64,000 bases of DNA from Pseudomonadota bacterium (lineage in GTDB: Bacteria > Bdellovibrionota > Bacteriovoracia > Bacteriovoracales > Bacteriovoracaceae). Below the pieces are notes generated by a model that was given only the letters and a program-made list of their open reading frames with translations, was not told the origin of the DNA and did no database searches. The DNA lies in NCBI GenBank assembly GCA_027488375.1, contig JAIYBW010000002.1, positions 496,001 to 560,000 on the forward strand. The letters are read 5' to 3'. Both the position numbers and the translations under genes were made by a program. Shown in pieces: positions 26,065-51,875 of this stretch (positions are counted from its first letter, which is position 1; the number at the start of each line of letters is the position of its first letter).

Positions 26065-26073
26065 TTAGAAGAA

Positions 26074-26109: not shown

Positions 26110-26183
26110 TAATTTTAAAGAATATCAAAAATTTGAAATCATTTATAATCAGACGCGATGATGAAAAGTATATTTTTTTTAGA

Positions 26184-26708: not shown

Positions 26709-26715
26709 GGATCTT

Positions 26716-26742
26716 TTATCGGTAAACAACTTAAAAACTATA
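26716..26742 (-). promoter_or_regulatory. sigma28 (FliA)-type promoter of the TetR gene
   Basis: Minus strand: TATAGTTT, 11-nt spacer, ACCGATAA; 7/8 and 7/8 matches to the FliA consensus, the best in the window. It lies between the PAS gene stop and the TetR start. Confidence 0.75.
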
Positions 26743-26743
26743 A

Positions 26744-30146: not shown

Positions 30147-30161
30147 GTTAATCTTTGTTCT

Positions 30162-31901
30162 ATGGATTCATTTAAGTTTGCTCTGCCTTATAGATATAAA
30201 TTTATCATTTTTTTTGTGATTTTGATCATCACCACACTTTTTGCCTTCCTCGGAGTGAGTGTTCGCTCTTTTGAAAAGGATAAAACTTCCTATGTCTTTG
30301 ATTACATACTAAACACAAACCAGACAAAAATTGGCAATTTTGAGGCGATTATCAAAGATGTAAAGTCATCTGTGACACTCTTTATCTTCAATAATAAGAG
30401 TGTTGATATTTCCCAAAAGATACAGTTTATCGCTCAACTGAAGTCGGACAAATTGCATCTTTTTAGGGGTCAGCATCGCGTAATGGACACTCTGGCTTCA
30501 GAACTCATTCTCCAAAAGTCACTACTTTCAGAATTAAATTCAAGTACCTCTTTGCTCATGCGTTTCGAAGCATCAAAAGATTTATATTTTTTACTTTTTA
30601 AAAGTCCCCTAGATAAATCCCTTATCATCACGGGATTAAATCGAGGCATCATTGATGATCTCTTTGAGAATGAAAATGGACAGTTTTCTTTTACTCACAA
30701 TGGAAAAGAAATTATTTCTACTCTTCCTGGGACCAATCGCTCAGTTGAAACACTTTTTAATCTTTCTCAAAATAAAGTTCAGCGCCTTAAAATCGATAAA
30801 GAAACCTACTATGCTGTTTCTACTCCCTCCAAGATTCTGAATCAAACAGTGGTGACAGCACTAAGAGAATCTGATCTTTTCTCCTTTCTGAGTGATCTGA
30901 GAACTCAAAATATTGCTCTGGCCGGACTCATTATTTCAATCAGTTCAATCATTGGAATTCTATACGCTAAGAAGCTGACGAATTCAATTAACCTCCTCAT
31001 TGGTGCCGCCAACCAAGTCTCTAGGGGAGACTATAATGTGAAATTTGAACAGGTGGAAGCTGGGGAGATCGGGGTTTTACAATCAACATTTGTGAAAATG
31101 TCCGAAGCCGTAAAATTTAGTCTCGCTCGAGAAAGAGAGCATCAAAGGATTGAAAATGATCTAAAAATCGCTCGTCTGGTGCAAGAAACATTCTTTCCTG
31201 AGTACCAATTAAAAAATGATCATGCCCATGTGGCCTGTTATTACGGCCCGGCCAATGAATGTAGTGGTGACTGGTGGGGATTTTTTGAGATAGATCACTT
31301 TCAGTACTATTTTATGGGAGATGCCACCGGCCACGGCGTCTCCTCCGCCCTTATGACAGCAAAGGCTTACTCCCTGGTGTATGGACTTAAAAATCAAATG
31401 CTGAGTAAAGAAATTGATTATCTCACTCCAGCAAAAATGATGGAGGCCCTCAACCAAGTTCTCTGTAGTTCAAAACAAGTATTGATGATGACCTTTTTCA
31501 TTATGCGGATAGATTCGCGCACAAGAGAAATGCTTTATGCCAATGCCTCCCATGAAATTCCTATTATTGTCACAGGTGCTGGCGAGGTTCAGGATTTGTT
31601 TGAAATAGGCTCCATGCCCGATGCCCGCTTAGGCTCTGAGATGGATGCTCAATATAAAAACTATACTTGGAAATTAAATCTCCATGATATCATTTTACTC
31701 TATACGGATGGATTAACCGAATGCTCTAACTCTCAAGGGAGATATTTCGGTGCCAAAAGAGTCACACTGGCGATGAAGAAAATGAAAGATCTGGAACCAG
31801 AAAAAATTGTTTCAGGACTTGTGAGCGAAATTACAAATTTTTCAAAAGCCTCATCATTTGAAGATGATGTGGGAATTATGGTTGTTAAAATATTGAATTA
31901 G
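30162..31901 (+). CDS. Membrane-bound SpoIIE/RsbU-type protein serine phosphatase
   Basis: About 579 residues from the ATG at 30162 (an upstream in-frame ATG at 30126 overlaps the divergent FecR gene). Two transmembrane helices flank a periplasmic sensor region (about 15-35 and 255-280). A HAMP domain (about 280-330) and a PP2C-like SpoIIE catalytic domain follow, with the metal-binding FMGDATGHGVSSALM and a C-terminal DDVGIMVV. Such phosphatases dephosphorylate STAS-domain antagonists in partner-switching systems. The adjacent gene encodes a STAS protein, which is the likely substrate. No RsbW-type kinase is in the window. Confidence 0.92.
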   Translation: MDSFKFALPYRYKFIIFFVILIITTLFAFLGVSVRSFEKDKTSYVFDYILNTNQTKIGNFEAIIKDVKSSVTLFIFNNKSVDISQKIQFIAQLKSDKLHLFRGQHRVMDTLASELILQKSLLSELNSSTSLLMRFEASKDLYFLLFKSPLDKSLIITGLNRGIIDDLFENENGQFSFTHNGKEIISTLPGTNRSVETLFNLSQNKVQRLKIDKETYYAVSTPSKILNQTVVTALRESDLFSFLSDLRTQNIALAGLIISISSIIGILYAKKLTNSINLLIGAANQVSRGDYNVKFEQVEAGEIGVLQSTFVKMSEAVKFSLAREREHQRIENDLKIARLVQETFFPEYQLKNDHAHVACYYGPANECSGDWWGFFEIDHFQYYFMGDATGHGVSSALMTAKAYSLVYGLKNQMLSKEIDYLTPAKMMEALNQVLCSSKQVLMMTFFIMRIDSRTREMLYANASHEIPIIVTGAGEVQDLFEIGSMPDARLGSEMDAQYKNYTWKLNLHDIILLYTDGLTECSNSQGRYFGAKRVTLAMKKMKDLEPEKIVSGLVSEITNFSKASSFEDDVGIMVVKILN

Positions 31902-31909
31902 GAAAAAAC

Positions 31910-32338
31910 ATGGCGGAAAAAATGGTTTCTGTAAAAATGATTACTGAAGATTTTAATCTTAAGGGTGAAGATTACGCCCATGAGAAAGAACTCCATTTAG
32001 ATTTCACCCATCTTCAAAAGATTAATTCCATAGGCTTGAGAAGTTTTATACTTTTCTTAAAATCCATTCCGGCGACGACACAGATAAAGTACCATCACTG
32101 CTCACCACTTTTTGTTCATATGTTTAATATTGTGGATGGACTCCTTCCAACCAATGTGGAGATCAAGTCCCTCTATATTCCTTATTTTTGCCCAACTTGC
32201 CAAAATGACTATACTTTTGAGGCCCAGGCGCCTTTCAATAAAGCTTCACTCCATGAGGTCCGCCAGTGTCCAGATGATGGAGCTCAATTGGAGCTTTTTT
32301 ACAGCGAGAATACCTTCTTTAAGTTTTTAAAAGCTTAA
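31910..32338 (+). CDS. STAS-domain protein with putative zinc-binding C-terminus
   Basis: The 142-residue protein follows the SpoIIE phosphatase by 8 bp. The N-terminal part has the STAS core LDFTHLQKINSIGLRSFI, where Ser is the equivalent of the regulated serine in anti-sigma antagonists. The C-terminal half carries CPTC and, after about 30 residues, a lone CPDD, which could bind metal, though only three cysteines are clear. A paralogue at 47.1 kb shares the INSxGLR motif and the following (Y/F)xxPYF/YAPYY segment but has no zinc cysteines. It is likely the phosphatase substrate in a partner switch (inference). Confidence 0.78.
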   Translation: MAEKMVSVKMITEDFNLKGEDYAHEKELHLDFTHLQKINSIGLRSFILFLKSIPATTQIKYHHCSPLFVHMFNIVDGLLPTNVEIKSLYIPYFCPTCQNDYTFEAQAPFNKASLHEVRQCPDDGAQLELFYSENTFFKFLKA

Positions 32339-32400
32339 AATCTCATCACATTTTTTAAGCAGCCATCAAAAATTGGCAATTTTTTGTCTTTTTTAAATTT

Positions 32401-32416
32401 TTGATCAATCGATCAA
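32401..32416. promoter_or_regulatory. Palindromic operator-like site TTGATC-AATC-GATCAA
   Basis: Perfect 6-bp arms around AATC, 112 bp before the start of the FN3/SUMF1-like lipoprotein gene. It matches the form TTGANC-N4-GNTCAA found upstream of the Cys-rich exported protein genes; the site at 35902 has the same AATC centre. Confidence 0.5.
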
Positions 32417-32527
32417 AATATCTTTATTGAGCTAAAACTCTAAAATCACAATCTCGCTCAGTAATTTTATGAATTGTTGAATCTCAAGCTTCATAATCGC
32501 TTTAAGAAAAAACTTAAAGGTTTAATT

Positions 32528-34543
32528 ATGAAAATGAGTTTTAAAAATTACATCATTATGTTCCAACTGATCCTGAATGTAAGTTGTATTAAGGGATTAT
32601 CAAACTATGAGGTAAAAACTGAAATCCTCCAAAATGAAGGTGATGCTATCATCACTGATTCCTCATTTACTTTTGGTGGTCTTACTGAAATTACCGATGT
32701 GACCAACTCATCTCTAGTGATTAATTGGGATTCACATCCAGATGCAGAACAATATCTTATTTATGAAGTAAGCCAACCTAAACCTCAACTAGTCGCAGGC
32801 CAGGTTGGCTCTACAAAAAAAACAATTCAACTCAATGATCTTAGTCCTTCGACGACCTATAAATTCCGCGTGCGCATGTTCACCCAGGGGAAGCAAGACA
32901 CTAATTCTAATGACTTCACAGTCACCACCAAGCCTGCCCCAAACGAGCCTTCCATTGAACTTTCCCCTCTTTCAATTTCTCCTGGGTTTAGCGCAACTCC
33001 CTCTTTTAAAGTCGAAGGCATAAGGGCAGGGCAAACTATTCGGTTGTTCGCCGATTCAGATTGTTCGCAAGCTATTGGTGAAAGTGTTGCCAGTGCTCAT
33101 CAAATCACTCTTAATTCAGACGAGTTACCTGTTGGAAATAATATAATATATGTGAAGGCTTTCAATGGAGAAAATGCTTCAACTTGTTCTTCAACCTTTG
33201 CTCAATACAGACGACTAGAGCCCTTTTTGGGAATTGTATTCGTTAACGAAATCACTGATACGACTGCCTTGATTTCCTGGAAGTCTCATCCAGCAGCTGT
33301 TGCCTATGATGTCTTTGATCTCTCTCAAGATATACCAACATACCTTGGAGGAGTATCAGGGCAAAACACAACCCAACTTCAACTTACGGGACTTGCTCCT
33401 TCGAGAACGTACCAGCTACAAGTACGCCTCAAACTTTCGAACGGAAGTTATGATAATAACTTCGTCACACTTTCATTAACCACAAATCAGGCACCCGAGA
33501 TTCCTTCTTCAGTGATCCTACTTTCACCGACTCAGAGTCCTGGTTTTAACGAAGCAGTTAGCATTCAAATCTCAGGTCTTAAGGCCGGAGATAGAATTGA
33601 ACTCCACAAAAACTCAAGTTGTAGTGATAAAATAGCACAGGATATCGCAAGTGGTAGTAGTCTCAATTTAAACCTTTCTCTCCCTCCTGACGCTTATCAA
33701 TTTTATGCGAAGGCCATAAATTCATCAGGCTTTAGTTCAGAGTGTTCCATATCTCATGCTAATTATACGAGGCTCATGTGTCCGACAAATTATATCCCTG
33801 TACCCGCTAATCAAAGCCTAGGAATAACTCAACCCTTTTGTGTCGCAAAGTATGAGATGAGGAATATTTCATTAAAAGCGACATCGACACCAACAGGATC
33901 ACCTTGGACATATATCACAAGAATCAATGCAAAATTTTACTGTACACAGTTAGGTGAGAAGTATGATCTCATCTCAAATCCTGAATGGCTCACTATTGCA
34001 CAGGATTTAGAAAATGTTGCTCATAATTGGGAAAGTCAGCAAGTGGGTCTAGGCCCTCTTTTTAAAGGAACTGCAAGCTCAACTCTTGGCCTATCAGCAT
34101 CAACGAACGATGAGCAGGGATATTTTGGAATTGAAAATCTAGCGACACAACCTATGGGTTCCGGCAAGGAACAACGACGAACGATGAAACTTTCAAATGG
34201 AGAGGTGATTTGGGATTTTTCAGGACATGCTTGGGAATGGGTAGATTGGACTCCTGGTGGTCAGCTTGATCAGGCACCAGCATGTACAGCAACAATCAAT
34301 GCTCAATTTACAAATGTTCAAACCTACTGCCCTTCCCTCGTTCCAGCTGATTATATGCCAACTAATCCCTCGGGCGTCGATCAAAATTTATACAATAGCG
34401 CAAATTACAATACGGGTGGTGTGACAGCTAGTCCCCTTGGAACAGCTGTACGAGGCGCCCATGGGATTTTCGGCCTTTCACTGGCTTATGGAAACACTTT
34501 CCAACATACAGGTATAGGTTTTAGATGTGTTTATCGACCTTAA
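32528..34543 (+). CDS. Lipoprotein with FN3 repeats and SUMF1/FGE-like C-terminal domain
   Basis: From the ATG at 32528 (AAAGG upstream) the protein has about 671 residues. A lipoprotein signal ends LILNVSC. Two fibronectin type III domains (about residues 45-140 and 230-325) share the ITDxTxxxxxxxW(D/K)SHP pattern, separated by Ig-like segments. The C-terminal part (about 420-671) resembles the formylglycine-generating-enzyme fold (FCVAKYEM, DFSGHAWEWVDWTP, GIGFRCV), usually a non-enzymatic ligand-binding domain when exported. It is likely surface-exposed. The palindrome at 32401 suggests shared regulation with the Cys-rich genes. Confidence 0.8.
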   Translation: MKMSFKNYIIMFQLILNVSCIKGLSNYEVKTEILQNEGDAIITDSSFTFGGLTEITDVTNSSLVINWDSHPDAEQYLIYEVSQPKPQLVAGQVGSTKKTIQLNDLSPSTTYKFRVRMFTQGKQDTNSNDFTVTTKPAPNEPSIELSPLSISPGFSATPSFKVEGIRAGQTIRLFADSDCSQAIGESVASAHQITLNSDELPVGNNIIYVKAFNGENASTCSSTFAQYRRLEPFLGIVFVNEITDTTALISWKSHPAAVAYDVFDLSQDIPTYLGGVSGQNTTQLQLTGLAPSRTYQLQVRLKLSNGSYDNNFVTLSLTTNQAPEIPSSVILLSPTQSPGFNEAVSIQISGLKAGDRIELHKNSSCSDKIAQDIASGSSLNLNLSLPPDAYQFYAKAINSSGFSSECSISHANYTRLMCPTNYIPVPANQSLGITQPFCVAKYEMRNISLKATSTPTGSPWTYITRINAKFYCTQLGEKYDLISNPEWLTIAQDLENVAHNWESQQVGLGPLFKGTASSTLGLSASTNDEQGYFGIENLATQPMGSGKEQRRTMKLSNGEVIWDFSGHAWEWVDWTPGGQLDQAPACTATINAQFTNVQTYCPSLVPADYMPTNPSGVDQNLYNSANYNTGGVTASPLGTAVRGAHGIFGLSLAYGNTFQHTGIGFRCVYRP

Positions 34544-34570
34544 TCACTGAAAACAGGAGCGGATTATCAT

Positions 34571-35311
34571 ATGGAAATATACACTCAGCAAAAGCAATTA
34601 AGAATTGTTGATATTTGTGATTCTGACATTAATTACCTTACCCTAAAAACCCTGAGTGGACCTAACCCAGTGATCATGGTCCAATTGGCATCGGTGTTTA
34701 TTTTGATTGCAGCTCCAACCATTGCTGGCGTCAATGCCCTCAACAGAGCAAAATCACGTCTAGCTGGAAAAGTTTACTGTTCAGCAATTGGCTCCTTTGC
34801 AAATTTCTTAATGTCAGCCAAAGTGGAAAGTTTCAGCAAATTCTTTTCTGGCAATATGTCTTTCTTCGATTGTCTTGAGGGATCATTCCTTAGGATCCCA
34901 ATGGGGCCTGAAAGCTTGGAGACTCCATCAATAAGAAATGGTATGCATCAGGGATTACTCCTCCCCAAATGCTCTGTACGTAATCTCATAGAGAACATTG
35001 AGAAATTTTCTCTCAAATATGAAACCACTCCTATCTTTCCTATCTCAAAATACCGAGCTCCTATTTGTACCAGCGCCAATATCAGTGGAGATGCCAGGGG
35101 ACCTATTGTAGAACTCAGAACGGCAAAAAACTTTGCCCTTCAAACGAATATCCCACTCATCATTGAAAATCATGAAATGGATAAAGATTCATTATCTTTT
35201 CCTATCCTATCATTTGAAAGAAATAAAATATCTATTGAAAGAGGAGGAAATGGGATCTCTAAAATTTTAAACAATCTGCCATCCTCAATAAGTATTGAGA
35301 TGGTTTTCTAA
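34571..35311 (+). CDS. Divergent YrdC/Sua5-like domain protein
   Basis: The 246-residue protein has no signal peptide. Two YrdC-family landmarks are seen: a K-x-R basic region (NRAKSRLAGKVYC, about residues 60-72) and CTSANISGD (about 167-175), similar to the family (P/T)SAN(I/L)SG motif. The canonical PTDTxYG segment is replaced by APTIAGVNAL. YrdC proteins make threonylcarbamoyl-AMP for tRNA t6A; the divergence suggests a different substrate. It follows a lipoprotein gene in the accessory region, 27 bp downstream, and is preceded by GGAG. The core Sua5 is probably elsewhere. Confidence 0.65.
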   Translation: MEIYTQQKQLRIVDICDSDINYLTLKTLSGPNPVIMVQLASVFILIAAPTIAGVNALNRAKSRLAGKVYCSAIGSFANFLMSAKVESFSKFFSGNMSFFDCLEGSFLRIPMGPESLETPSIRNGMHQGLLLPKCSVRNLIENIEKFSLKYETTPIFPISKYRAPICTSANISGDARGPIVELRTAKNFALQTNIPLIIENHEMDKDSLSFPILSFERNKISIERGGNGISKILNNLPSSISIEMVF

Positions 35312-35333
35312 ACGCAAAACAAGTGAGGTACGT

Positions 35334-35693
35334 TTGAAGAAAAAATCTTTTATTTTAATGTTTATCATTTTAATTAACAGCCAATTATTTGGAGCAGAAA
35401 CATTTAATGATTTAGAAATGAAAGAAAGTGCTGAATTAAGCTCTGAGGTTAGTGAGAAATATTTCTTTCACCCAACCACAGGAGAGGAGCAACCAATCTC
35501 AGATGATTACACTTGCACTCAAGACATTAGCGGAAATTATAACATCAACTTATGTCAGTCTAAAAAATGCAATGCCAGCTATGCCGACAATAAATGTGGG
35601 AGGTTTCACCATAATGAACATGGTACTCGAGTGTTTACGTCTGGCTCATGTTGCATGAGTAATCTGAGATATTTAATTGAAACTATATTTTAA
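35334..35693 (+). CDS. Small exported Cys-rich protein
   Basis: The start is TTG at 35334, supported by GAGG 5 nt upstream and by the signal peptide that begins there (KKKSFILMFIILINSQLFGA); the frame is open further upstream. The product has 119 residues. The mature part is acidic at first, then has six cysteines in about 50 residues, including a CC pair, consistent with disulfide-stabilised extracellular folding. I recognise no family. It starts 20 bp past the YrdC-like gene and is followed by a hairpin. Confidence 0.7.
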   Translation: MKKKSFILMFIILINSQLFGAETFNDLEMKESAELSSEVSEKYFFHPTTGEEQPISDDYTCTQDISGNYNINLCQSKKCNASYADNKCGRFHHNEHGTRVFTSGSCCMSNLRYLIETIF

Positions 35694-35705
35694 TTTTTCA
35701 GTTGT

Positions 35706-35746
35706 GGATATCTCCCTTTTAGTTCTTATACTAAGAGGGGGTATCC
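35706..35746 (+). terminator. Hairpin after the Cys-rich gene, possible terminator
   Basis: GGATATCTCC pairs with GGGGGTATCC over 10 bp (two G-U) and is followed by an A-rich, not T-rich, sequence, so termination is uncertain. Confidence 0.35.
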
Positions 35747-35901
35747 TAAAAAATTCAACAAGCTCTTATCTATTTTCATCACCAAAACCCAACCATAGTC
35801 ATTAAACGACAATCACAACTTATTGATATAGCGCGGACGTGAGCTATAAAATTTTGAAATTGCCAATATTTTCTGGCTAAATCAGGAGAACTTTTCGTTT
35901 T

Positions 35902-35917
35902 TTGAACAATCGTTCAA
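35902..35917. promoter_or_regulatory. Palindromic operator-like site TTGAAC-AATC-GTTCAA
   Basis: Perfect 6-bp arms around AATC, 149 bp before the start at 36066. Same form as the sites at 32401, 40380 and 40914. Confidence 0.55.
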
Positions 35918-36065
35918 TTCGAATCAAAAAAGCGTATCTTACTGAAAAAGCTTCCATTGAATCAATTAAGAGGTACTTTCAGTCTCCCATAATTCAATCC
36001 ATGTAAAAATCATTTCAAGAAAGAGAAACAGAAATTTCTCTCGAAAAACGAACAAGGGGAAAAAT

Positions 36066-36578
36066 ATGAAATTGAACAAAATCTTAGCTCTAGGCTTTAC
36101 AATTCTGATCCAATCTCAATTCGCATTTTCTTTATCTAGTTTGGATATCTATGATCAAATTACGGTGGAGCCATTAATTTCTGTAGGATTACAGTGTCCA
36201 ATCGATAATGGCGTCGTCAACTTTAAGGCCTGTAAGTCAGTTCTTGAATGTGACCCAAATGCTTTCATACTCCCGCTCGGTGGAAAACCAGGCAAAGTAA
36301 GTGGCCTTATCTGTTTTTTACAGATTGAACCCGATGTAGAGACTGATAAAACAATTGAATCTTCTCAAAATTTGTTATCAATACTGGAAGGCGAGAGTCA
36401 AGCGACCTTTGATTACGACCATATATTTAAATGTAAGGGAAATGACGGTTATTATCATGTAATAGGTTATGGTAATAGCTCTAGCGGCCCAGATGTTGAT
36501 CCAAATGGTCAGGGCTGTAACGGAGCAAACACGGCATGGGAAGCTTGTGCAGAGAAAAGAATCGAAAGTAATCTGTAG
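36066..36578 (+). CDS. Exported Cys-rich protein, paralogue of the protein at 41.1 kb
   Basis: The 170-residue product has a signal peptide (MKLNKILALGFTILIQSQFAFS) after AAGGGG. Residues 40-100 match the protein at 41073: C, then GVVNFKAC, C(D/P)xxA, SGL(I/V)C and PD(V/I), with conserved order and similar spacing, and the signal peptides are alike too. The last 60 residues are extra and contain GYGNSSSGPDVDPNG and three more cysteines. It belongs to the secreted set controlled by the TTGAAC palindrome (inference). Function unknown. Confidence 0.72.
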   Translation: MKLNKILALGFTILIQSQFAFSLSSLDIYDQITVEPLISVGLQCPIDNGVVNFKACKSVLECDPNAFILPLGGKPGKVSGLICFLQIEPDVETDKTIESSQNLLSILEGESQATFDYDHIFKCKGNDGYYHVIGYGNSSSGPDVDPNGQGCNGANTAWEACAEKRIESNL

Positions 36579-36594
36579 ACGTAAATTAATAAAT

Positions 36595-36634
36595 TTATTG
36601 AGCCAGTAGTGCATTTTCACTCCTGGCTCAATAA
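36595..36634 (+). terminator. Strong hairpin after the exported Cys-rich gene
   Basis: TTATTGAGCCAG / CTGGCTCAATAA perfect 12-bp stem with an inner AGTG/CACT pairing and a 6-nt loop. No T-run follows, so it may stabilise the 3' end rather than terminate strictly. Confidence 0.6.
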
Positions 36635-36708
36635 TAGATTTAAAAATCAATGTTTCTAATAAAGGGTTATGCATTAAAAGTGTGATAAAAAAGAATTTAT
36701 TAATTTAA

Positions 36709-36989
36709 AAAATACCATCCGTCGCACTGATAATTTACTCCTTTTCTTGCCTTGGAAGTGATTATGGATCCTCTCGCGATGTTAAGGTTATAGATGTTAT
36801 TCATCCTTCTTTTAATATTTCTCTCGATCCTAGTGACTGCAGGTCCCCAAACGATTCAGATATTAGGGCGCAGGCGGGAGTGGGAACGGAACATATGATC
36901 AATTTGAAATAGAAAATACTCATGAAAATGGATGGGAAATCCTTACCTCGAATTTAATTGAGGAGGCTCAAGAAACTTGTATTGAGTAA
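36709..36989 (+). pseudogene. Probable frameshifted remnant of a small exported protein gene
   Basis: Codons from 36709 stay open for about 60 residues with plausible composition (SFSCLGSDYGSS, NISLDPSDCRSPNDSD). Near 36865-36885, in a Gly-rich run, the reading switches to another frame that continues NGTYDQFEIENTHENG and ends at TAA 36987. One base change would join them. There is no start codon or ribosome-binding site at the beginning, so the gene is broken at its 5' end as well. It could be a relict of the neighbouring exported family, but no clear similarity is visible. Confidence 0.4.
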
Positions 36990-37311
36990 TAGATAGAAAA
37001 ATAGACTTTGAAGGGATCAAGTAAATTCATTTCTCGTGTCTTAGTTTTGTTTTGTAGCAATACTAAACTGGTTTAACTCCTCATTAGATAACCCTATTAC
37101 GAAAGAACTACTGAACTATTTCGGTGCTGGCATTTTCTAAACAGGTTACAGATACTAAAAATAAATAAATTGTCCTAATGAGCCTTGAGTGTTTGAGTAA
37201 TGTTGGTCGTGCACAACGCATATTCTACCATTCGATTGATGGTCGCCCTCGGAAAGTACACCGAGATAAATCCAAGGTTGTTTTGATGTTTATCCTTGGA
37301 TGAATGTATTT

Positions 37312-37650
37312 TTAAATCGCTAGCCAATGCAGAGGCTTAAGCTTAGAGTTCTTTTTTGAGATGAGGTCGTTAATCTCCATATTAAAAATCGCATTACCAG
37401 TTTGTTCAAAGTAATCGTGATTGAAGCTGCTAGACATTTTTGCCAGATCCTCAAACTTGGGTTCTACTGTTCGCCGATATGAGGTGGCATTTAGAAAAAA
37501 ATTTAAGATTAAAACAGCTCTTGTGTAAGCTAAATATGAATATTGAGTTAGAAGGTATTTTTTTCAAGGGTGTACCATTTTGTTAATGTGGTAACATTTG
37601 GCTTCTCACCGCAATGCTGTAGCCGTGATAGTATCTTTGATTGTGTATAT
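37312..37650 (-). pseudogene. Probable frameshifted gene remnant of unknown family
   Basis: On the minus strand a frame ending at TAA (37312-37314) is open to 37563 and reads like a protein (YLLTQYSYLAYTRAVL, EDLAKMSSSF, NDLISKKNSK). Just upstream, at a run of A bases, a different frame continues with LQHCGEKPNVTTLTKWYTL. A single frameshift in the A-run would join them into roughly 110 residues. No intact start is present. I do not recognise the family. Confidence 0.4.
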
Positions 37651-37702
37651 ATTTAGCATTTCAGTGATAGGAAAAAAAACTGTGATCGAATCAACGAGCT
37701 TT

Positions 37703-37733
37703 ACTTTAAATCTATTTGTCATAGATTTAAAGT
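37703..37733. repeat. Perfect inverted repeat, 13-bp arms, 5-nt loop
   Basis: ACTTTAAATCTAT / ATAGATTTAAAGT with loop TTGTC, in non-coding DNA; no T-run follows. Confidence 0.8.
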
Positions 37734-38017
37734 TTAAATTTGGCTGAACAAGAGAATTGTTTCCATCAATTGCCCTTGACTGTGATTTAAATCATGGTTT
37801 ATCAGTGCTTAAGATTTGCATAAACCACTAATTAGCACAAATAAAAGAAAAGCGATTTATGAGACCTTTTACATTTCTGCATCGCTTGTTTTCGACTTAA
37901 ATTCGTAATCAGCACAAGAAAAGTGAAAAACGTTTGCACTAGTAATGAACGCGCCAGCTGAATAATATGGATATCCATTAATGCTTTTGGGAATTGCTAG
38001 TTGCAAATGAAGCTATT

Positions 38018-38058
38018 CTTTGTCACGCCCTTAAGGAGCACTTAAGGGCGTGACAAAG
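38018..38058. repeat. Perfect inverted repeat, 18-bp arms, 5-nt loop
   Basis: CTTTGTCACGCCCTTAAG / CTTAAGGGCGTGACAAAG with loop GAGCA. This is the longest perfect hairpin seen in the window, in non-coding DNA and not followed by a T-run on either strand. Confidence 0.9.
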
Positions 38059-38161
38059 TAATCAACATTATTTTGTTCGCAGGACAGAATTAAGGCAAAA
38101 AGAGTTTAATTAAAAATGAGAGCAAAAAATACAATCTCATTTTGATCCCTTTCTGCTTTCA

Positions 38162-38190
38162 ATTAATGATTCAGCATTTGAATCATTAAT
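38162..38190. repeat. Perfect inverted repeat, 12-bp arms, 5-nt loop
   Basis: ATTAATGATTCA / TGAATCATTAAT with loop GCATT. Confidence 0.8.
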
Positions 38191-38411
38191 ATTGAATATG
38201 GATCTCTATTAATTTATCCTATTTCTGTCGAGAAGTATTACCAATAAAAGCTGCAATTCAATTATTCATTTTTCAAACTAGCTGTAATTAGTACCTTGAG
38301 TGAGGTACTGATTTGTTCGTGACCCCAACTTGAAGGCTACCTCCTAATTTTGGAGGAAAGTCATGGAATTATATAGAAAAAGAATATCTAAAAAAAAAAG
38401 GAGTTACTTTG

Positions 38412-38461
38412 TAAATCTGAATTGGCTAGTTGCTTTCAAACAAGTGGCCAATTCAGATTTA
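38412..38461. repeat. Inverted repeat, 15-bp perfect arms, 20-nt loop
   Basis: TAAATCTGAATTGGC / GCCAATTCAGATTTA. It lies 8 bp beyond the stop of the minus-strand exported gene and could mark its transcript end; a T-run on the minus strand occurs only about 15 nt later. Confidence 0.7.
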
Positions 38462-38469
38462 TGCTTTCT

Positions 38470-38817
38470 TTACTCTCGAAACAGTCGACTGCTTGGATCA
38501 GCCTTGTGGCAATCGTGTTTTTTCTCTTTCTTTCTAAAAGCATTACGCCACCAACAACCTACCTCGTTAGTTATTATTTCACCTCCGGCAGGATCCGCTT
38601 GATTCAATCCTGTAATTTTTCTCAGTATCTCTTCTTGTTCTCTTGTTAAGGTCTGCTCAAATTGATCAAGCAACACTTCATCTCTATCAACTAATTCGCT
38701 TTCAATGACTTCCTGTTGCTCTAAAGTATCAACCAGCTCAATCGATTCTAACTCATTTGAGAATGCAGAGATCGATAGCGATAATGACAAGGTTGTGATA
38801 AAAATTTTTTTCAACAT
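38470..38817 (-). CDS. Small exported acidic protein
   Basis: From the ATG at 38817 (AAGGAG 6 nt upstream) the product has 115 residues with a signal peptide (MLKKIFITTLSLSLSISAFS). The mature part is acidic (many Glu, Asp, Gln) with a helical middle and ends in a basic segment containing two cysteines (GCWWRNAFRKKEKKHDC). A longer frame to 38871 has no better start. An ACCGATAT element lies upstream but without a matching -35, so sigma28 use is doubtful. It is the last of a minus-strand run of small exported genes. Function unknown. Confidence 0.68.
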   Translation of the reverse strand: MLKKIFITTLSLSLSISAFSNELESIELVDTLEQQEVIESELVDRDEVLLDQFEQTLTREQEEILRKITGLNQADPAGGEIITNEVGCWWRNAFRKKEKKHDCHKADPSSRLFRE

Positions 38818-38925
38818 ACGTACTCCTTTTTTTATATCGGTTTTTAATGTACCGAAACCATTTAGATTCAAATCAAGTTTTTAGATATATTATTTTCCCA
38901 AAAAAGAAATAAATTAAAAACACTA

Positions 38926-39225
38926 TTAACAACTCCCAACCGATGCACAATGATTACAGTTTTTTTCACTCCATTCAACGCCTTTGTCCTCTGCTGATTT
39001 AACTACATTTCCTTTTTTGTCCAGGGTGTCCTCTATGCAACCTGATTTTTTACCATTACAACATGCATAGTAAACTCCATTAATACTTAGTACTGGCTCA
39101 ATGACATCCTCCAGTGAATTAATATTGTAATCACACGTCAAAACGTCTCGTGAAGATAGGTAACAGTTTTGTGCGTAAGCCTGTCCAAAGATTGAAATTG
39201 TCAGAACTAGTATAATCTTTTTCAT
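38926..39225 (-). CDS. Small exported Cys-rich protein
   Basis: The 99-residue product has a signal peptide (MKKIILVLTISIFGQAYAQ) and eight cysteines in about 80 mature residues, including a CC pair and a C-terminal CNHCASVGSC. It carries INGVYYACCNG, similar in style to the LRNGRYYRL segment of the 165-residue protein three genes upstream. This points to a disulfide-rich extracellular protein. AAAGGAAAA precedes the ATG. It lies 76 bp after its upstream neighbour. Confidence 0.7.
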   Translation of the reverse strand: MKKIILVLTISIFGQAYAQNCYLSSRDVLTCDYNINSLEDVIEPVLSINGVYYACCNGKKSGCIEDTLDKKGNVVKSAEDKGVEWSEKNCNHCASVGSC

Positions 39226-39301
39226 AAGATTTTCCTTTTATTTAATTTTTTATTGAAAATAATTAAACTGTTGTGAGCCCCTTTTAATAAATTTGAATCC
39301 T

Positions 39302-39721
39302 TTAACAATCATTTGTTGATTCAATAGTGATTGAGTATGCTCCGTCACAAACTCTATTAATTTCATCTTGTGGGCAAGTTGATGTTGCCGAATCCGCATC
39401 ATTCCCGCACAAAGTGAATTCAATAATTCCAACTTCATAATCTTTATGAACGCAACCGATTTTAATTCCATTCAGTTGTGTACCCGGCAATGGTGGAGAC
39501 GATGGGTTTACTAACTTGTATTTATAATTTGGTAAATTTAAATAGAAAGTGTCATGTCGAGAACGGTTTCGATTTAATGCTGGATCCGGCTCCTGAGGAT
39601 CCACAGGATCTTCAATCTCCGGCAACTCATTTTCTATCGAAGTATAGTCTGCACAGATTCCATGATTGATAGAAACAACCAACATCAAGAGAGTAACTTT
39701 AACAATTTTATTCATTTTCAT
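39302..39721 (-). CDS. Exported Cys-containing protein, distant relative of the GVVxFxxC proteins
   Basis: From the ATG at 39721 (AAAGGAG upstream) the protein has 139 residues; a longer frame to 39790 overlaps the preceding gene. A signal peptide (MKMNKIVKVTLLMLVVSINHGICA) is followed by an acidic Pro-rich stretch. The C-terminal part shows C-x6-GIIEFTLC and CPQD, similar to the GVIDFLSC/CPEE pattern of the proteins at 36.1 and 41.1 kb, suggesting one family. It also shares YTSIE with its upstream neighbour. It starts 16 bp after that gene, probably in one operon. Confidence 0.68.
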   Translation of the reverse strand: MKMNKIVKVTLLMLVVSINHGICADYTSIENELPEIEDPVDPQEPDPALNRNRSRHDTFYLNLPNYKYKLVNPSSPPLPGTQLNGIKIGCVHKDYEVGIIEFTLCGNDADSATSTCPQDEINRVCDGAYSITIESTNDC

Positions 39722-39737
39722 AACCACTCCTTTATTA

Positions 39738-40235
39738 TTAATTATTTGATTTTCCAAAATTGCCGCAAGGATACAAGTTATTTGGTACACACTGACTTGA
39801 ACTCGGAAATCTTAAACGTTTTACAATACCGTCATTTACGATCTGATATGAATAAGAACCTGTTATATCTACAAGTAATTTATAAGGATTGAAAAAATTT
39901 TTCGGAATTTCTACTTTTACACACTCTTCAAATGGAGCAAGTTCAAGTTCGCAGCTTTCGATTGAAGTATATCCAAGAGAACTCCCACCCACCACGAATC
40001 TCTGAGCAAGATTGCCAGCAATATTTAGGCATAAGTCTTGTTGGGTTAGCCTGTAGTATCTGCCATTTCTTAAGACTAGAGACTGTATGTTGTTATATCC
40101 GCACAAACTAAAATCACTACCAGCGCCACCTGAACCATCCCCTATATCCGGCACTTCTGTTAACGGATCGTTCGCCATAACACTGAGGCTTAATAAAAAA
40201 TTTAGCATGAGACATGATAGCTTTTTATATTTCAT
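39738..40235 (-). CDS. Exported Cys-containing protein, first gene of the leftward group
   Basis: The 165-residue product has a signal peptide (MKYKKLSCLMLNFLLSLSVMA) and GGGGGAAT before the ATG. The mature part has a Gly/Ser linker, then strand-rich sequence with six or more cysteines and a YTSIESCELE segment shared in part with the next gene. No family recognised. It heads the leftward set (40235 to 38470). The palindrome TCGAAC-AAAT-GTTCAA stands 145 bp before its start, matching the placement at the two rightward loci. Confidence 0.7.
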   Translation of the reverse strand: MKYKKLSCLMLNFLLSLSVMANDPLTEVPDIGDGSGGAGSDFSLCGYNNIQSLVLRNGRYYRLTQQDLCLNIAGNLAQRFVVGGSSLGYTSIESCELELAPFEECVKVEIPKNFFNPYKLLVDITGSYSYQIVNDGIVKRLRFPSSSQCVPNNLYPCGNFGKSNN

Positions 40236-40379
40236 TGATTCCCCCTAAGTTAAAGTCAGGATTTTTACATCTCCTGTTTCTTCAAAAGAATAACATTCAT
40301 GAATTTTTCTTTTCATGAAAACTATTGCTCACACATGGAAGCGAGGGAATTTCAGCGACTTAAGACGGACTGTAGTTTT

Positions 40380-40395
40380 TCGAACAAATGTTCAA
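40380..40395. promoter_or_regulatory. Palindromic operator-like site TCGAAC-AAAT-GTTCAA
   Basis: One mismatch between arms. It lies 145 bp before the start of the leftward group (40235). Confidence 0.5.
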
Positions 40396-40755
40396 ATCAA
40401 GCACCATGTATCGTTTTGTGATAACTATTGTTGGCACAGAAGATTTTTTTATAATTCAGATGCTTGATTTTTCAACTACATAATAAAAAATTTTCCGACT
40501 TTTAAAATCAGATGACGACGAACTATGCACGGCAGGCCCTACAAGAAAAATAAATAGGAGGACCAAAATCATTATTTCTTTCAGCTGACTTCCCTCTCTC
40601 CACCCTTTGTATAAACACACTCTAGTCTTATCAAATTTCCTGCTCAGTCATTTATCACAACATAGTCTTTCTCATTTTCTTTTTCATCTCATATCGTTCA
40701 ATCGTTCCTCACTGCCTAAACAATCCCTCATGATGTCGAATAATTTTTCTTCTTT

Positions 40756-40771
40756 TTGATCATTTGTTCTT
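40756..40771. promoter_or_regulatory. Degenerate copy of the palindrome, TTGATC-ATTT-GTTCTT
   Basis: Same length and centre as the other copies but with imperfect arms; mid-region, with no gene directly served. Confidence 0.25.
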
Positions 40772-40913
40772 TTAAAAAACCTTGGGAGATACACAATTCT
40801 TTGCCCCTTCTTTTTATTTCTAATAATTTAGCTTTGATAAATTATGTTAACTAAATTCATTGGCACTAATTAATGACATATTAATGAGGCACTTTTATAT
40901 CATTAAGATTTTT

Positions 40914-40929
40914 TTGAACAAATGAACAA
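40914..40929. promoter_or_regulatory. Palindrome-related site TTGAAC-AAAT-GAACAA
   Basis: The left arm fits; the right arm reads GAACAA instead of GTTCAA, giving direct GAACAAAT repeats. It lies 144 bp before the start at 41073. Confidence 0.4.
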
Positions 40930-41072
40930 ATAAGTTTCCTTTTTGGTAACTATCTAAAATGTTTACTTTAAATCTTTTTCTTTCTTCTTTATCATAATCA
41001 TTTCTTTTTTTAATGTGATCATGGGTCCAAGACAAGCCAATTGTCTAATAACCAATTGCAAGTGAGGATGAC

Positions 41073-41369
41073 ATGAAATTAATTGCCTCTACATTTTTAT
41101 TCTCTAGCTTATTTTTTCAAACTCAATTAGCCTTTTCTGTACCATCTCCTAAAAAGCTTGTTACAGTTTGTTCCTATTCCTTTGGTGTCATCGATTTTCT
41201 GAGCTGCGAAGCCTCTTATGTTTGCCCCGAAGAAGCTGTCGTTCTTACATTTGACGGTAGTAAACCAATCTATCAATTTCCAAAAAAATCAGGCTTAGTT
41301 TGCATTCTTCCTGTCGGACCTGATATTGGAGATGATGAATTAAATGAAAGTCTAGTTTTAGAGTACTAA
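41073..41369 (+). CDS. Small exported Cys-rich protein, paralogue of the protein at 36.1 kb
   Basis: The 98-residue product has a signal peptide (MKLIASTFLFSSLFFQTQLAFS) and GTGAGG before the ATG. The mature part contains GVIDFLSC, CPEEAVVL, KKSGLVCIL and PDI in the same order as GVVNFKAC, CDPNAFIL, KVSGLICFL and PDV in the 36066 product, so the two are paralogues; this copy lacks the 60-residue C-terminal extension. It is the first gene of a rightward pair. Function unknown; four cysteines suggest two disulfides. Confidence 0.72.
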   Translation: MKLIASTFLFSSLFFQTQLAFSVPSPKKLVTVCSYSFGVIDFLSCEASYVCPEEAVVLTFDGSKPIYQFPKKSGLVCILPVGPDIGDDELNESLVLEY

Positions 41370-41389
41370 CCCCGAAATTGGAGGAATCT

Positions 41390-42097
41390 ATGAAAATGAA
41401 TAAGAAGTATTTTGCTATTTTTTTTATCGTACTTTCTTTATTTAATGCCACAACCGGCTTTGCGCAAATCATTTTGACCAAAGAAGTCTTAACTCCTTAT
41501 CTACTTACTTGGAGCTCCAATAATACTTCAGAAGGAAAACTTGCTTCCTTTCAGCTGAATTTTCCAAATGGTTCGGTTCAGGCTTTGGGTTTTTTGAATT
41601 TCCCCTATTCTGATTTTGGTACTGTTCCTAAGACTGCTGGCTACGGAGGTGTATCCTGGCCTCGGATTTTTTTAAGTAAACCCATGCTCCTTAAATCTAC
41701 TAATCAAGTTTGCAGCTATAAGGCTAGAGTTGGGGTTAATTTAAATGGCCCGGGTTACCCTTTTCAAATTAAGGAATTTGCGACAACTGCATGGGCGATT
41801 GATCCGATTACTAAAGCTGTGATTGATCCCTCTCAGAGTCTAAATTTAACTCAGATCACAAATCGATTTAAGTTTAAGATTAGTCCAGACATCGAAGTCA
41901 TCTTCAGTTTTACCGAACATAAAAATATTTATAATCAGCGCTATTATTTTAGTTACAGCCTCCATATGACTGGCCCTGTTTCAGGTCTCGCTGGAGCTGG
42001 AGCACCCTTTTCCCATGTACCTTTTATCACCTTTCAGGGGATACAACTCACCAAAGCCTGTTATGAACTTGACGGTCCAGTTGATCCCATTGATTAA
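41390..42097 (+). CDS. Exported protein of unknown function
   Basis: The ATG at 41390 has GGAGG 5 nt upstream; an earlier in-frame TTG at 41378 is part of that site. The 235-residue product has a signal peptide (MKMNKKYFAIFFIVLSLFNATTGFAQ). The mature part is strand-rich and aromatic, with repeated F(P/N)G, GYGGVSWPRIF and YYFSYSLHM segments and only two cysteines. It starts 20 bp after the small Cys-rich gene and ends with a strong terminator, forming a two-gene operon. No family recognised. Confidence 0.72.
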   Translation: MKMNKKYFAIFFIVLSLFNATTGFAQIILTKEVLTPYLLTWSSNNTSEGKLASFQLNFPNGSVQALGFLNFPYSDFGTVPKTAGYGGVSWPRIFLSKPMLLKSTNQVCSYKARVGVNLNGPGYPFQIKEFATTAWAIDPITKAVIDPSQSLNLTQITNRFKFKISPDIEVIFSFTEHKNIYNQRYYFSYSLHMTGPVSGLAGAGAPFSHVPFITFQGIQLTKACYELDGPVDPID

Positions 42098-42115
42098 CTC
42101 ACCTTCATTCTTCTT

Positions 42116-42143
42116 AAAAGGGTCATCTTCGGATGACCCTTTT
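42116..42143 (+). terminator. Intrinsic terminator with UUCG loop
   Basis: AAAAGGGTCATC / GATGACCCTTTT perfect 12-bp stem with a TTCG tetraloop, 18 bp after the stop; ends in TTTT. Confidence 0.85.
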
Positions 42144-42245
42144 CGCAAGATTTAAACAACTTACAAATCCCGACAAAATCACTTCATCAGTAAGGTTTCT
42201 CTCTCATCAACCGAAAAGATTCATTATTTTTCTGAGTGAAAAGTC

Positions 42246-45200
42246 ATGAATTACGTTATTTTATTAATTTTAAGTTGGGCACTCATTGCGTGCAAAATTC
42301 AGGTGGATGTTTCACCACCGTCCGCTTTAATTGATAACTCTCCACCAAGTATCATTTCAATCAGTGCACCTGCCGCTGGTGTTTATCTCACGAATCCTGG
42401 AAGTCATTTAGATTTCACCGTCAACTTCAATGAAAATATTTTAGTCACTGGAACTCCGGCACTGACTTTAACCGTTGGTACAACCAATCGGAAGGCGACT
42501 TATTTTAGTAGAATCGATTCTGACTCCTTAGTTTTTCGCTACACAACGAATCCCACAGATGATGACAGTAATGGAATTACGCTCCACACTTCTTGGGATT
42601 TTACCGATGGAAATTTAACCAACTCCTCATCCCTGGCCGCTGCCTCCAGTTTCTCGGCCCTCCTCTTACCTGAACTTGAAGATGTGAAGGTCAATCGCTC
42701 ACCGAGTGTCGTGAGTTTCAATGTGACAGAGTCCACTTACACTTATCTTCAAAATCTTGATATCCACGTCACCTTTTCTGAAGTGGTCATAGGCACCTCC
42801 TCGCGACTTGTCCTCAATGTAGGAGGAAGCACTCGCTATGCCGTTTATCAATCTGGCTCTGGCACCGGGATCACTTACCGTTGGACCAACACGGGAGGAT
42901 TGAGTGATACCGAAGACGGTATCACTATCATCACACCGATCGATTTGAATGGAGGAACACTTAAAGATTCATCAAATAACGATGCCATCCTGACTTTTAC
43001 TTCACCCAATACTTCAGGTGTCTTAGTCGATGGAAACTATCCGGTGCCAGTAACTTTAAGTTATTATGGTGTGAATAATTTTACTTACATGCCAGGTGGA
43101 AGTGCCGCCCAACTTTACCCTACTTTAACTCCAGCGACAGTCGTGAACTATTCTTTAAACTCAATCTTAAATACCTGGAACATCAATTCATCCTCTGGAG
43201 CGATAACTTACTCAACTGGCGTACATTCTGCTACAACTCGCACCATTAGGGCGACCAATACCTCAGGCGAAACCACCACGGCCCTCACCACCACTTCGCT
43301 CCCGATTATTTATAAAAATCAAATTTTACTTGGAACTAATATCAACTGTGCTCTGGCCAGTGGAGGATTAGATTGTTGGAAAAATGATTTTACTTATCAG
43401 GTAAATCTTATCCCTTACGGTACGGGGGCAGAACATATTTTTGGAATCGGAGAAAATGTTTGTGTGATAGTCCCTGGAGATGGAATTAAATGTTTTACCA
43501 ATTCCATTTCCATCAATCGTATGATTCCGTATTTAGGATTCACAGTGCTAGAAGCCTCAGATGGCACCCCTGTGGATAAAATCTCACAAGTTGCCGCAGG
43601 CCCCAACCACACCTGCTACTTGCGGCTGGGTAAAGCCTATTGTTTCGGAGATAATACCTACGGACAATCGGGTGGAACGGATGGGTCCTATGAAGAAACC
43701 AGCCAGCTCGTATCTGAAACAATTTTGTTTCAAAAAATTGCCGTGGGCCAGGACCATACTTGCGGACTCTCTGGAAGAAATCTTTATTGTTGGGGTCGCA
43801 ATCTGGAAGCTCAATTGGGTGGCCTAGACTCCACTTCACCTCCCCCTATGACAAGCACATCCAATCCCTATTTAAGTAGAACGTTGGTCTCTGATTTTAC
43901 TTTAGGATTACATTTCACTTGCGCCGTTTCCTCAGCTCTAGTTTATTGCTTTGGAAAAAATTCTAGTGGAGAACTTGGTCGAACTGGTCCTGCAGGTTCA
44001 GAAACCCTGGCCACAATAAATATAAATAATGTCATACAAATTAAATCCCACCCTTCTGCAAGTTACGTGATCGCCTTGCTAAGTAATGGTCAAACCTATG
44101 GCTGGGGAAATTTATCTCAATTCAACTCAAGTCTTGGAGCTGCAGTGACGACTCCTACGATTCTCTCAGGCCTTTCTTATGTATCCCAAGTTGTAGCAGG
44201 ACCCAATCGCGCCTTCCTTCAGAAAAATCTCTCCAGTTCTCAATCAGCGGCCTGGATAGATTCTCAGAATGGAAACGTGATTGGAGGTTTTAACCCAAAT
44301 GCAAGCTTCAACGGTTTATCGGCCGGGTATGATGGCACTTGCGTTCACCTCTCTTCCACCCCACATTGTTTTGGAAGTAATGCCGCCAATAAATTGACCC
44401 AAAGAACACTCAGTACTTTTCTTCCCTTGAATTCTCTTTTTGCTAATAGTTTTGATACTGACCATCAATTAAATCAGCGGATCATCACTACTTCATCTAT
44501 TGGTGGAGCTCATGGTTGTTATCAGGCCGGAGAAAAGACCATTTGTGCTGGCAATGTCTTTCCTGGTGATCCAACAAATTACGGCACTGGAGTTCTGGTT
44601 AACACTCCCTCATCTGGTGCTAAAAAAATCTGCTCGGGGAATAGTTTCACTTGTTCTCTAGGGATTAATCAAAATCTCGAGTGTTGGGGAGATAACTCAT
44701 CCAAACAGATTAATCCCACTGGGCCCTCCTCCTACACCACCCCACAAGTTATCAATGAAGTTGCGATGGATATCGCCTGTATGGCAGATGCTGTTTGTAT
44801 TATCAAAGCGAACAATAGAATTTTCTGTCAGGGAGATGGATATGGAACCTCTGGCCTCACTGAGGTTTTAACTGGACGCCCTAGTGAGCGCTTTACCCGT
44901 CTGAAAGCGGGATCAAATTTTGCCTGTGCAGAAACCGACGATCATAAACTCATCTGCTTTGGTGAGAATGATCAGAGACAACTTGGGAATAACAGTGTGA
45001 CTGATACAACGAATGGTGTTTTGGTCATGGACAACAATCTCTCCGGCATTATCCATCATCCAGTCAAAGAATTCACTCTTGGATCTAAGCATGTTTGTGC
45101 AACAGGGAGTGGAGACGGAGTTGGAATAGAAAAACTTTTTTGCTGGGGACAGAATAACTCCGGACAAGTTCATCCTGGAAATGCGGCGACACCTATTACA

Positions 45201-45386
45201 GCCACAAATATCCCCCTAAGAACGAACTATGGAACCATTTATGACATGGCGGCCGGAGCTTCTCATACATGCCTTCACATCAATGGAGGCTTTCAATGCT
45301 TTGGGGATACTAATGTTATTGGAATTGATTCTGCCAAGGCGAGCCTCAGTGAATTTAACCCTATCCTTCCTTTTATTTACCGCTAA
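42246..45386 (+). CDS. Large lipoprotein with Ig-like domains and Cys-paired RCC1 repeats
   Basis: The 1046-residue product has a lipoprotein signal (MNYVILLILSWALIAC). Two Ig-like/cadherin-type strand-rich domains (about residues 35-150 and 155-260; F(N/S)E(N/V)xxxxGT pattern) precede an extended region from about 365 to the end made of RCC1-type repeats: (V/L)AAGxxHTCxL...LYCWGxNxxGQLG. Almost every blade has a pair of cysteines, one in HTC and one in YC(W/F)G, presumably forming a disulfide in each repeat. Predicted fold: one or more seven-bladed propellers on the cell surface, likely for binding. It is a single-gene unit. Confidence 0.85.
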   Translation: MNYVILLILSWALIACKIQVDVSPPSALIDNSPPSIISISAPAAGVYLTNPGSHLDFTVNFNENILVTGTPALTLTVGTTNRKATYFSRIDSDSLVFRYTTNPTDDDSNGITLHTSWDFTDGNLTNSSSLAAASSFSALLLPELEDVKVNRSPSVVSFNVTESTYTYLQNLDIHVTFSEVVIGTSSRLVLNVGGSTRYAVYQSGSGTGITYRWTNTGGLSDTEDGITIITPIDLNGGTLKDSSNNDAILTFTSPNTSGVLVDGNYPVPVTLSYYGVNNFTYMPGGSAAQLYPTLTPATVVNYSLNSILNTWNINSSSGAITYSTGVHSATTRTIRATNTSGETTTALTTTSLPIIYKNQILLGTNINCALASGGLDCWKNDFTYQVNLIPYGTGAEHIFGIGENVCVIVPGDGIKCFTNSISINRMIPYLGFTVLEASDGTPVDKISQVAAGPNHTCYLRLGKAYCFGDNTYGQSGGTDGSYEETSQLVSETILFQKIAVGQDHTCGLSGRNLYCWGRNLEAQLGGLDSTSPPPMTSTSNPYLSRTLVSDFTLGLHFTCAVSSALVYCFGKNSSGELGRTGPAGSETLATININNVIQIKSHPSASYVIALLSNGQTYGWGNLSQFNSSLGAAVTTPTILSGLSYVSQVVAGPNRAFLQKNLSSSQSAAWIDSQNGNVIGGFNPNASFNGLSAGYDGTCVHLSSTPHCFGSNAANKLTQRTLSTFLPLNSLFANSFDTDHQLNQRIITTSSIGGAHGCYQAGEKTICAGNVFPGDPTNYGTGVLVNTPSSGAKKICSGNSFTCSLGINQNLECWGDNSSKQINPTGPSSYTTPQVINEVAMDIACMADAVCIIKANNRIFCQGDGYGTSGLTEVLTGRPSERFTRLKAGSNFACAETDDHKLICFGENDQRQLGNNSVTDTTNGVLVMDNNLSGIIHHPVKEFTLGSKHVCATGSGDGVGIEKLFCWGQNNSGQVHPGNAATPITATNIPLRTNYGTIYDMAAGASHTCLHINGGFQCFGDTNVIGIDSAKASLSEFNPILPFIYR

Positions 45387-45640
45387 AAATCTCTCGATTC
45401 CCGGATCAACTTCCACATTTTTTTGGCACAACCTCAGGATTGGATCTGAAATACGTTCTATTTAAGTTCAATGAGAAGTCTAAACTCAACCTAAGTCATT
45501 CAATTTAGGCTCTTCCTTTTTTTTGGTAAAAAATATTTTGCCTCTACGAAATCCCTTATTACTTTTTGAATAGGAAAACTTTCGTCCCCTTGACCAGATC
45601 TGGTTGTTCAAAAAATTCCCGCCAAAAAATCCAATCATAA

Positions 45641-45663
45641 GTTGGGCGTCCCAGACGCCCAAC
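45641..45663. terminator. Hairpin terminator between convergent genes
   Basis: GTTGGGCGTC / GACGCCCAAC perfect 10-bp stem with a CCA loop; a T-run follows on the plus strand (CATCTTTTT). It lies 8 bp beyond the stop of the minus-strand gene. Confidence 0.7.
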
Positions 45664-45671
45664 ACATCTTT

Positions 45672-47602: not shown

Positions 47603-47689
47603 TCGTCACTCCAGTAACAAATTATCTAGCTTTAATTATACATGTTTCGGAACTACAATTTAAAAATAAAGATTAAGAGATTTAATAAG

Positions 47690-47766
47690 TGGTCGGGGTG
47701 ATTGGATTCGAACCAACGACCACCTGCTCCCAAAGCAGATACGCTACCAGGCTGCGCTACACCCCG
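47690..47766 (-). tRNA. tRNA-Pro (anticodon TGG)
   Basis: On the minus strand, a 77-nt cloverleaf: acceptor CGGGGTG/CACCCCG, anticodon loop TTTGGGA giving TGG, T-arm with GTTCGAATC, and CCA encoded at the 3' end. It lies downstream of the STAS gene and upstream of rdgB in opposite transcription order, as a stand-alone gene. Confidence 0.95.
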
Positions 47767-51870: not shown

Positions 51871-51875
51871 GATAT

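What the first reader, a model, noticed from the sequence alone, without database searches (positions are those of the whole stretch)
35295..42097. Cluster of small exported Cys-rich proteins in two divergent groups
Seven consecutive genes (35334, 36066, and facing groups 40235-38470 and 41073-42097) encode small exported proteins, most with 4-8 cysteines and no family I recognise. The products of 36066 and 41073 are clear paralogues (GV[VI]-F-x2-C ... SGL[IV]C ... PD[VI]), and the 39302 product has a weaker copy of the same GIIEFxxC pattern. The cluster is flanked by large surface lipoproteins and lies in AT-rich DNA with gene remnants. This could be a secreted toxin, effector or adhesion-type system.
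Basis: partly seen in the sequence, partly recalled or inferred. Interest (0 to 1): 0.75.

Follow-up and report, generated by a model that had tools for sequence, protein, structure and literature searches.

The report
Orphan secreted-protein genes in tRNA island
A bacterium of the predatory Bacteriovoracaceae lineage carries, inside a DNA island inserted at a tRNA gene, eight small exported proteins, most rich in cysteine and most unlike anything found in 369 relatives; their job is unknown, but they share control sequences and one looks partly built from a pilus subunit.

Summary
There are eight small genes, not seven. All have Sec-type signal peptides and ribosome-binding sites, and six of the mature proteins have 4-8 Cys. 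36066/41073 are paralogues; 39302 is a weaker one. No profile or sequence library names any of them, and no convincing full-length homologue turned up in 129 family or 369 phylum genomes. The cluster lies inside a 21.6-kb genomic island (26071-47689) between tRNA-Pro and a decayed 54-nt copy of that tRNA's 3' end; the nearest relative has the empty site. Further features: a palindrome, TTTTTYGAACAAWYGTTCAA, 143-148 nt upstream of three of the transcription units, with no exact match elsewhere in the genome; a broken copy of the 41390 gene at 37505-37791; and a probable, not proven, pilin-derived C-terminal half in the 36066 product. The genome's own copy of the known Bdellovibrio pilus-control 'hit' locus lies elsewhere, so this is not that locus. 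Best reading: island-borne, co-regulated, fast-turning-over exported accessory proteins acting in the periplasm or at the surface, perhaps on the type IV pilus. Secretion, toxicity and adhesion are untested. Lineage-specific exported orphans on islands are common, so interest is moderate.

The parts
26071..26125 (.). Decayed copy of the tRNA-Pro 3' end (left island border, attL-like)
   Evidence: 41 of 54 nt identical to the tRNA-Pro 3' part (33 of the first 37); score 28 against at most 14 elsewhere in the window
26126..47689 (.). Genomic island, absent next to tRNA-Pro in nearest relative G007
   Evidence: G007 joins the 762-aa gene directly to tRNA-Pro
47690..47766 (-). tRNA-Pro (TGG), right island border
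   Evidence: ARAGORN; Rfam
35334..35693 (+). P0001, 119 aa exported, 6 Cys mature, TTG start
   Evidence: no family
36066..36578 (+). P0002, 170 aa: signal peptide, P0007-like domain (about 23-93), probable pilin-derived part (about 94-167)
39738..40235 (-). P0006, 165 aa exported, 6 Cys; first gene of a four-gene unit
39302..39721 (-). P0005, 139 aa exported, 5 Cys; weak P0007 paralogue
38926..39225 (-). P0004, 99 aa exported, 8 Cys
38470..38817 (-). P0003, 115 aa exported, 2 Cys; last gene of the unit
   Evidence: inverted repeat 38412-38461 followed by a T-run downstream
41073..41369 (+). P0007, 98 aa exported, 4 Cys; paralogue of P0002 N-terminal domain
41390..42097 (+). P0008, 235 aa exported, 2 Cys; low-confidence all-beta model
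37505..37791 (-). Broken, frameshifted copy of P0008 residues about 130-228
   Evidence: tblastn linked pieces E=3e-8; 0 of 500 shuffles for each piece
35902..35917 (.). Palindrome TTGAACAATCGTTCAA, 148 nt upstream of P0002
40380..40395 (.). Palindrome TCGAACAAATGTTCAA, 144 nt upstream of P0006
40914..40929 (.). Imperfect copy TTGAACAAATGAACAA, 143 nt upstream of P0007
32528..34543 (+). Surface lipoprotein with FN3 repeats and FGE-sulfatase-like end
42246..45386 (+). Surface lipoprotein with RCC1 repeats

Best explanation
This is the exported-protein cargo of a tRNA-Pro-associated genomic island in a member of the Bacteriovoracaceae. Shown from sequence: eight Sec-type small exported proteins in about four transcription units inside a 21.6-kb island bounded by tRNA-Pro and a decayed piece of it; most orphan; partly related by duplication and decay. 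Inferred: one regulator reads the shared palindrome and switches on at least three units together, with the island's sensor, SpoIIE-phosphatase and STAS-like proteins possibly upstream. The products cross the inner membrane by Sec, are disulfide-bonded in the periplasm, and act there or at the cell surface as fast-evolving accessory factors for contact with other cells. The 36066 product would meet the type IV pilus through its pilin-like half, much as the unrelated small exported protein Bd0108 modulates the pilus in Bdellovibrio. The island anatomy is about 0.9 likely, the co-regulated exported set about 0.7, and the pilus or surface function about 0.3.
For: Island: displaced tRNA fragment, empty site in G007, the SMC-to-tRNA-Pro interval variable across the genus. 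Export: signal peptides and SDs. Co-regulation: shared palindrome at 143-148 nt, 3-way word score reached by 1 of 200 shuffles, only two exact genome matches to the derived pattern and both here. Paralogy and decay. Pilin likeness: residues 94-167 match PilA-type pilins in several family genomes; with most pilin models P0002 is the best non-pilin among 5,593 ORFs (13-19 bits against about 6); both pilin Cys align. Literature analogue: Bd0108/Bd0109 (PMC3818213, PMC4267844).
Against: No expression, secretion or phenotype data. Both structure predictions were poor (pLDDT 46.5 and 37). The pilin models contain sequences chosen for likeness to P0002; the genome's own pilins, alone or in a small mixed set, do not find it and the three G058 pilins do so only weakly. 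The palindrome pattern was derived from the sites it describes, and no regulator was assigned. Orphan genes beside pseudogenes may be non-functional.
Confidence: 0.4

Rival explanations
1. Decaying island debris: the genes are orphan leftovers in an island losing function, kept by chance.
For: Broken P0008 copy and frameshifted remnant inside the cluster, decayed island border, no integrase found, no homologues, weak codon bias for P0004 and P0006.
Against: Eight intact frames with signal peptides and SDs, raised Cys content, inverted repeats after units, shared palindrome.
Confidence: 0.25
2. Secreted antibacterial toxins or effectors used on prey or competitors.
For: Exported, Cys-rich, fast-turnover island genes in a lineage that includes predators (lifestyle from established knowledge).
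Against: No toxin, effector, immunity or defence family match (the single weak PADLOC hit of P0004, E 0.0055, is below any useful level); no delivery machinery in the cluster.
Confidence: 0.15
3. Surface or biofilm structural proteins working with the two flanking lipoproteins.
For: Cluster sits between FN3/FGE and RCC1 surface lipoproteins; a weaker palindrome-like site precedes the left lipoprotein (32401-32416).
Against: No shared domains with the lipoproteins; the weak site may be chance.
Confidence: 0.15

Closest known systems
Bdellovibrio hit locus (Bd0108/Bd0109; PMC3818213, PMC4267844)
   Same: Small Sec-exported lineage-specific proteins linked to type IV pilus in a related predator group; BMS_0183/4 in Bacteriovorax marinus are likewise small exported neighbours without Bd0108 homology
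   Different: No RHS partner or tad genes here; the genome's own hit-like locus lies at G000:C2 (L227) with its own 62-aa exported protein, unrelated in sequence
tRNA-integrated genomic islands (Islander type; PMC4383910)
   Same: Insertion at the tRNA 3' end, displaced tRNA fragment, empty site in relative, variable cargo
   Different: No integrase found; border copy decayed, so probably old and immobile
Type IVa major pilins (PilA)
   Same: P0002 residues 94-167 resemble the part after the N-terminal helix, including two Cys
   Different: No prepilin peptidase site or N-terminal methylated helix and no pilin C-terminal part; cannot assemble as an ordinary pilin

Membership tests
tRNA-associated genomic island | Displaced fragment of the tRNA 3' end at the far border | tested here: met
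   41/54 nt, score 28 against at most 14 elsewhere
tRNA-associated genomic island | Empty site in a close relative | tested here: met
   G007 (L088): 762-aa gene then tRNA-Pro
tRNA-associated genomic island | Tyrosine integrase gene | tested here: not met
   No integrase among the island ORFs scanned; remnant region 36580-38470 negative. Loss is common in old islands, so the claim is limited to an island-like, probably immobile insertion
Bd0108/Bd0109 hit locus | RHS protein and tad genes adjacent | tested here: not met
   The hit-like locus is elsewhere in the genome; the RHS family has its only genome match there
Type IV pilin | N-terminal prepilin cleavage and methylation motif | tested here: not met
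   P0002 has a Sec-type signal peptide; genome search with PF07963 gives no match in the window
Type IV pilin | Sequence likeness of the globular part | tested here: inconclusive
   Best non-pilin of 5,593 ORFs with most models, E 0.0005-0.03, but models partly selected
Known toxin, effector or defence families | Profile match in Pfam, NCBIfam, PHROGs or PADLOC | tested here: not met

The most novel reading that the evidence does not exclude
An island-encoded, co-regulated set of soluble exported proteins, one a pilin-body chimera lacking the assembly helix, that caps, blocks or tunes the type IV pilus or its contact with other cells: a new kind of pilus-control cargo in this lineage.
Probability: 0.1. 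Interest if true: 0.7.

Novelty: new member of a known kind. Interest (0 to 1): 0.4.

Why it matters
If functional, it shows how accessory exported proteins arise and turn over on islands in a predatory lineage, and gives a testable handle (one palindrome, three units, one pilin-like chimera) on how such bacteria tune cell contact. If not, it is a clear example of orphan genes dying in an island.

Tried and rejected
P0001 matches to 520-544-aa proteins: those opened are sigma-54-type regulators matched by a short LSSEVSxKY stretch; chance. P0008 hits in G017, G010, G019, G058, G080: not upheld; shuffle z-scores of search-selected hits are inflated, which is also why the pilin case rests on profile ranking. 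Foldseek of the P0008 model: TM at most about 0.2, meaningless. Viral contigs with P0008 and P0006, plasmids with P0008 and P0002, phages with P0006: nothing. Genome contigs with A1: nothing (the patterns fell in the signal peptide). Palindrome elsewhere: the C8 match lies between convergent genes with GC-flanked arms and looks like a terminator. Sigma-70 and terminator scans: no excess over shuffles. P0003 GidA/TetQ and P0004 PtuB hits: too weak to use. TetR gene at 26184 as reader of the palindrome: considered, no evidence. One model run ('low_hits') silently reused the previous model and was repeated correctly.

Full report
What is there. The window lies in an 11-contig, 3.2-Mb genome. Its RNase PH is 97% identical to a Bacteriovoracaceae MAG (CE-Jul18-149; contig of the same length and match as relative G007) and 77-89% to other Bacteriovoracaceae or Bacteriovorax MAGs, so it belongs to that lineage; predation by this organism is not shown. 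The finding contains eight genes, not seven: P0001 35334-35693 (+), P0002 36066-36578 (+), P0006 40235-39738, P0005 39721-39302, P0004 39225-38926, P0003 38817-38470 (all -), P0007 41073-41369 (+), P0008 41390-42097 (+). Each has a Sec-type signal peptide and an SD. Mature Cys counts are 6, 7, 2, 8, 5, 6, 4, 2 in order P0001-P0008. Codon bias supports six of eight frames. Inverted repeats follow P0002 (36595-36634), P0003 (38412-38461) and P0008 (42104-42155), suggesting separate units, although a generic terminator scan gave no excess over shuffles.

Relatives. Pfam, NCBIfam, PHROGs and PADLOC (all eight proteins) and PDB sequences (P0002 only) give nothing useful. Searches of 98 relatives, 129 family genomes and 369 phylum genomes gave no convincing full-length homologue. 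Inside the cluster P0002 and P0007 are paralogues, P0005 is a weak third, and P0008 has a broken copy at 37505-37791 on the minus strand (no shuffle of 500 reaches either piece).

The island. Left of the cluster, at 26071-26125, sits a decayed copy of the tRNA-Pro 3' end (41/54 nt; score 28 against at most 14 elsewhere in the window). The real tRNA-Pro is at 47690-47766. In G007 the 762-aa gene that precedes this copy is followed directly by tRNA-Pro. So 21.6 kb was inserted at tRNA-Pro, or was lost in G007. The interval between the SMC gene and tRNA-Pro is variable across the genus; G001, G022 and G025 carry distant homologues of some of the island's STAS-like, SpoIIE and sensor genes there. 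The island holds a TetR regulator, PAS and kinase proteins, a SpoIIE phosphatase with two paralogous STAS-like proteins, a YrdC-like gene (assigned by eye; no Pfam match), two large lipoproteins and the cluster. No integrase or integrase remnant was found.

Shared control element. A palindrome of the form TTTTTYGAACAAWYGTTCAA stands 148, 144 and 143 nt upstream of P0002, P0006 and P0007. A three-way word test gave a score reached by 1 of 200 dinucleotide shuffles. In the whole genome the derived pattern has two exact matches, both here, and the third site at two mismatches. The pattern was derived from the sites, so the genome count illustrates rarity and is not an independent test. A weaker site precedes the left lipoprotein.

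A probable pilin chimera. P0002 residues 94-167 match PilA-type pilins in several genera of the family, with KTxE, DYD, C, GY, G[FY], NG and C aligned. Shuffle z-scores of such search-selected hits are inflated, as chance P0008 hits showed, so I ranked P0002 against 5,593 ORFs: with most pilin models it is the best non-pilin (L143, which ranks above it, is itself a pilin by its score of 88-143 bits), 13-19 bits against about 6 for the next. But models from the genome's own pilins, alone or in a small mixed set, do not find it, and the three G058 pilins rank it only fourth. I put true homology at about 0.7. It lacks the pilin N-terminal helix, so it could not assemble as a normal pilin.

Interpretation. 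Sequence shows an island with a set of exported, mostly Cys-rich orphan proteins in several stages of duplication and decay. That they are switched on together is likely; that they act in the periplasm or at the surface follows from the signal peptides; that one acts on the pilus is a guess from the chimera and from the published precedent of Bd0108, a 101-aa exported orphan whose loss reduces pili and which binds Bd0109, a protein with a putative pilin-like N-terminus (PMC3818213; PMC4267844). The genome's own hit-like locus (RHS protein, tad-type genes, a 62-aa exported protein) lies at G000:C2 (L227) and shows no similarity to the cluster, so membership in that locus is excluded, though working like it is not. 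Toxin or effector function is possible and untested. Unrelated small exported Cys-rich proteins also occur at the same tRNA-Pro interval in G003 (L096:6509-6868) and elsewhere in this genome (L083:2326-2592), so such genes are ordinary for the lineage.

Noticed in passing
L227 (G000:C2:22000-34000): Hit-like locus: a Bd0109-type RHS protein (542 aa) next to TadB-, CpaF/CpaE- and CpaC-like genes (assigned by eye) and a 62-aa exported protein in the neighbourhood.
   Followed up: partly
30126-32338 and 45672-47602: SpoIIE phosphatase plus two paralogous STAS-like proteins and sensor kinases on both sides of the cluster: a likely partner-switching module, with distant homologues of several of these genes beside tRNA-Pro in G001, G022 and G025.
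   Followed up: partly
38018-38058: Perfect 18-bp inverted repeat CTTTGTCACGCCCTTAAG in the remnant region.
   Followed up: no
L096:6509-6868: Unrelated 119-aa exported protein with 8 Cys in the tRNA-Pro interval of relative G003.
   Followed up: no
51133-58403: FHA proteins, a PP2C/SpoIIE-type phosphatase and a T2SSF-domain protein in one block right of the island.
   Followed up: no
36700-36990: Frameshifted remnant reading like another small exported protein.
   Followed up: partly
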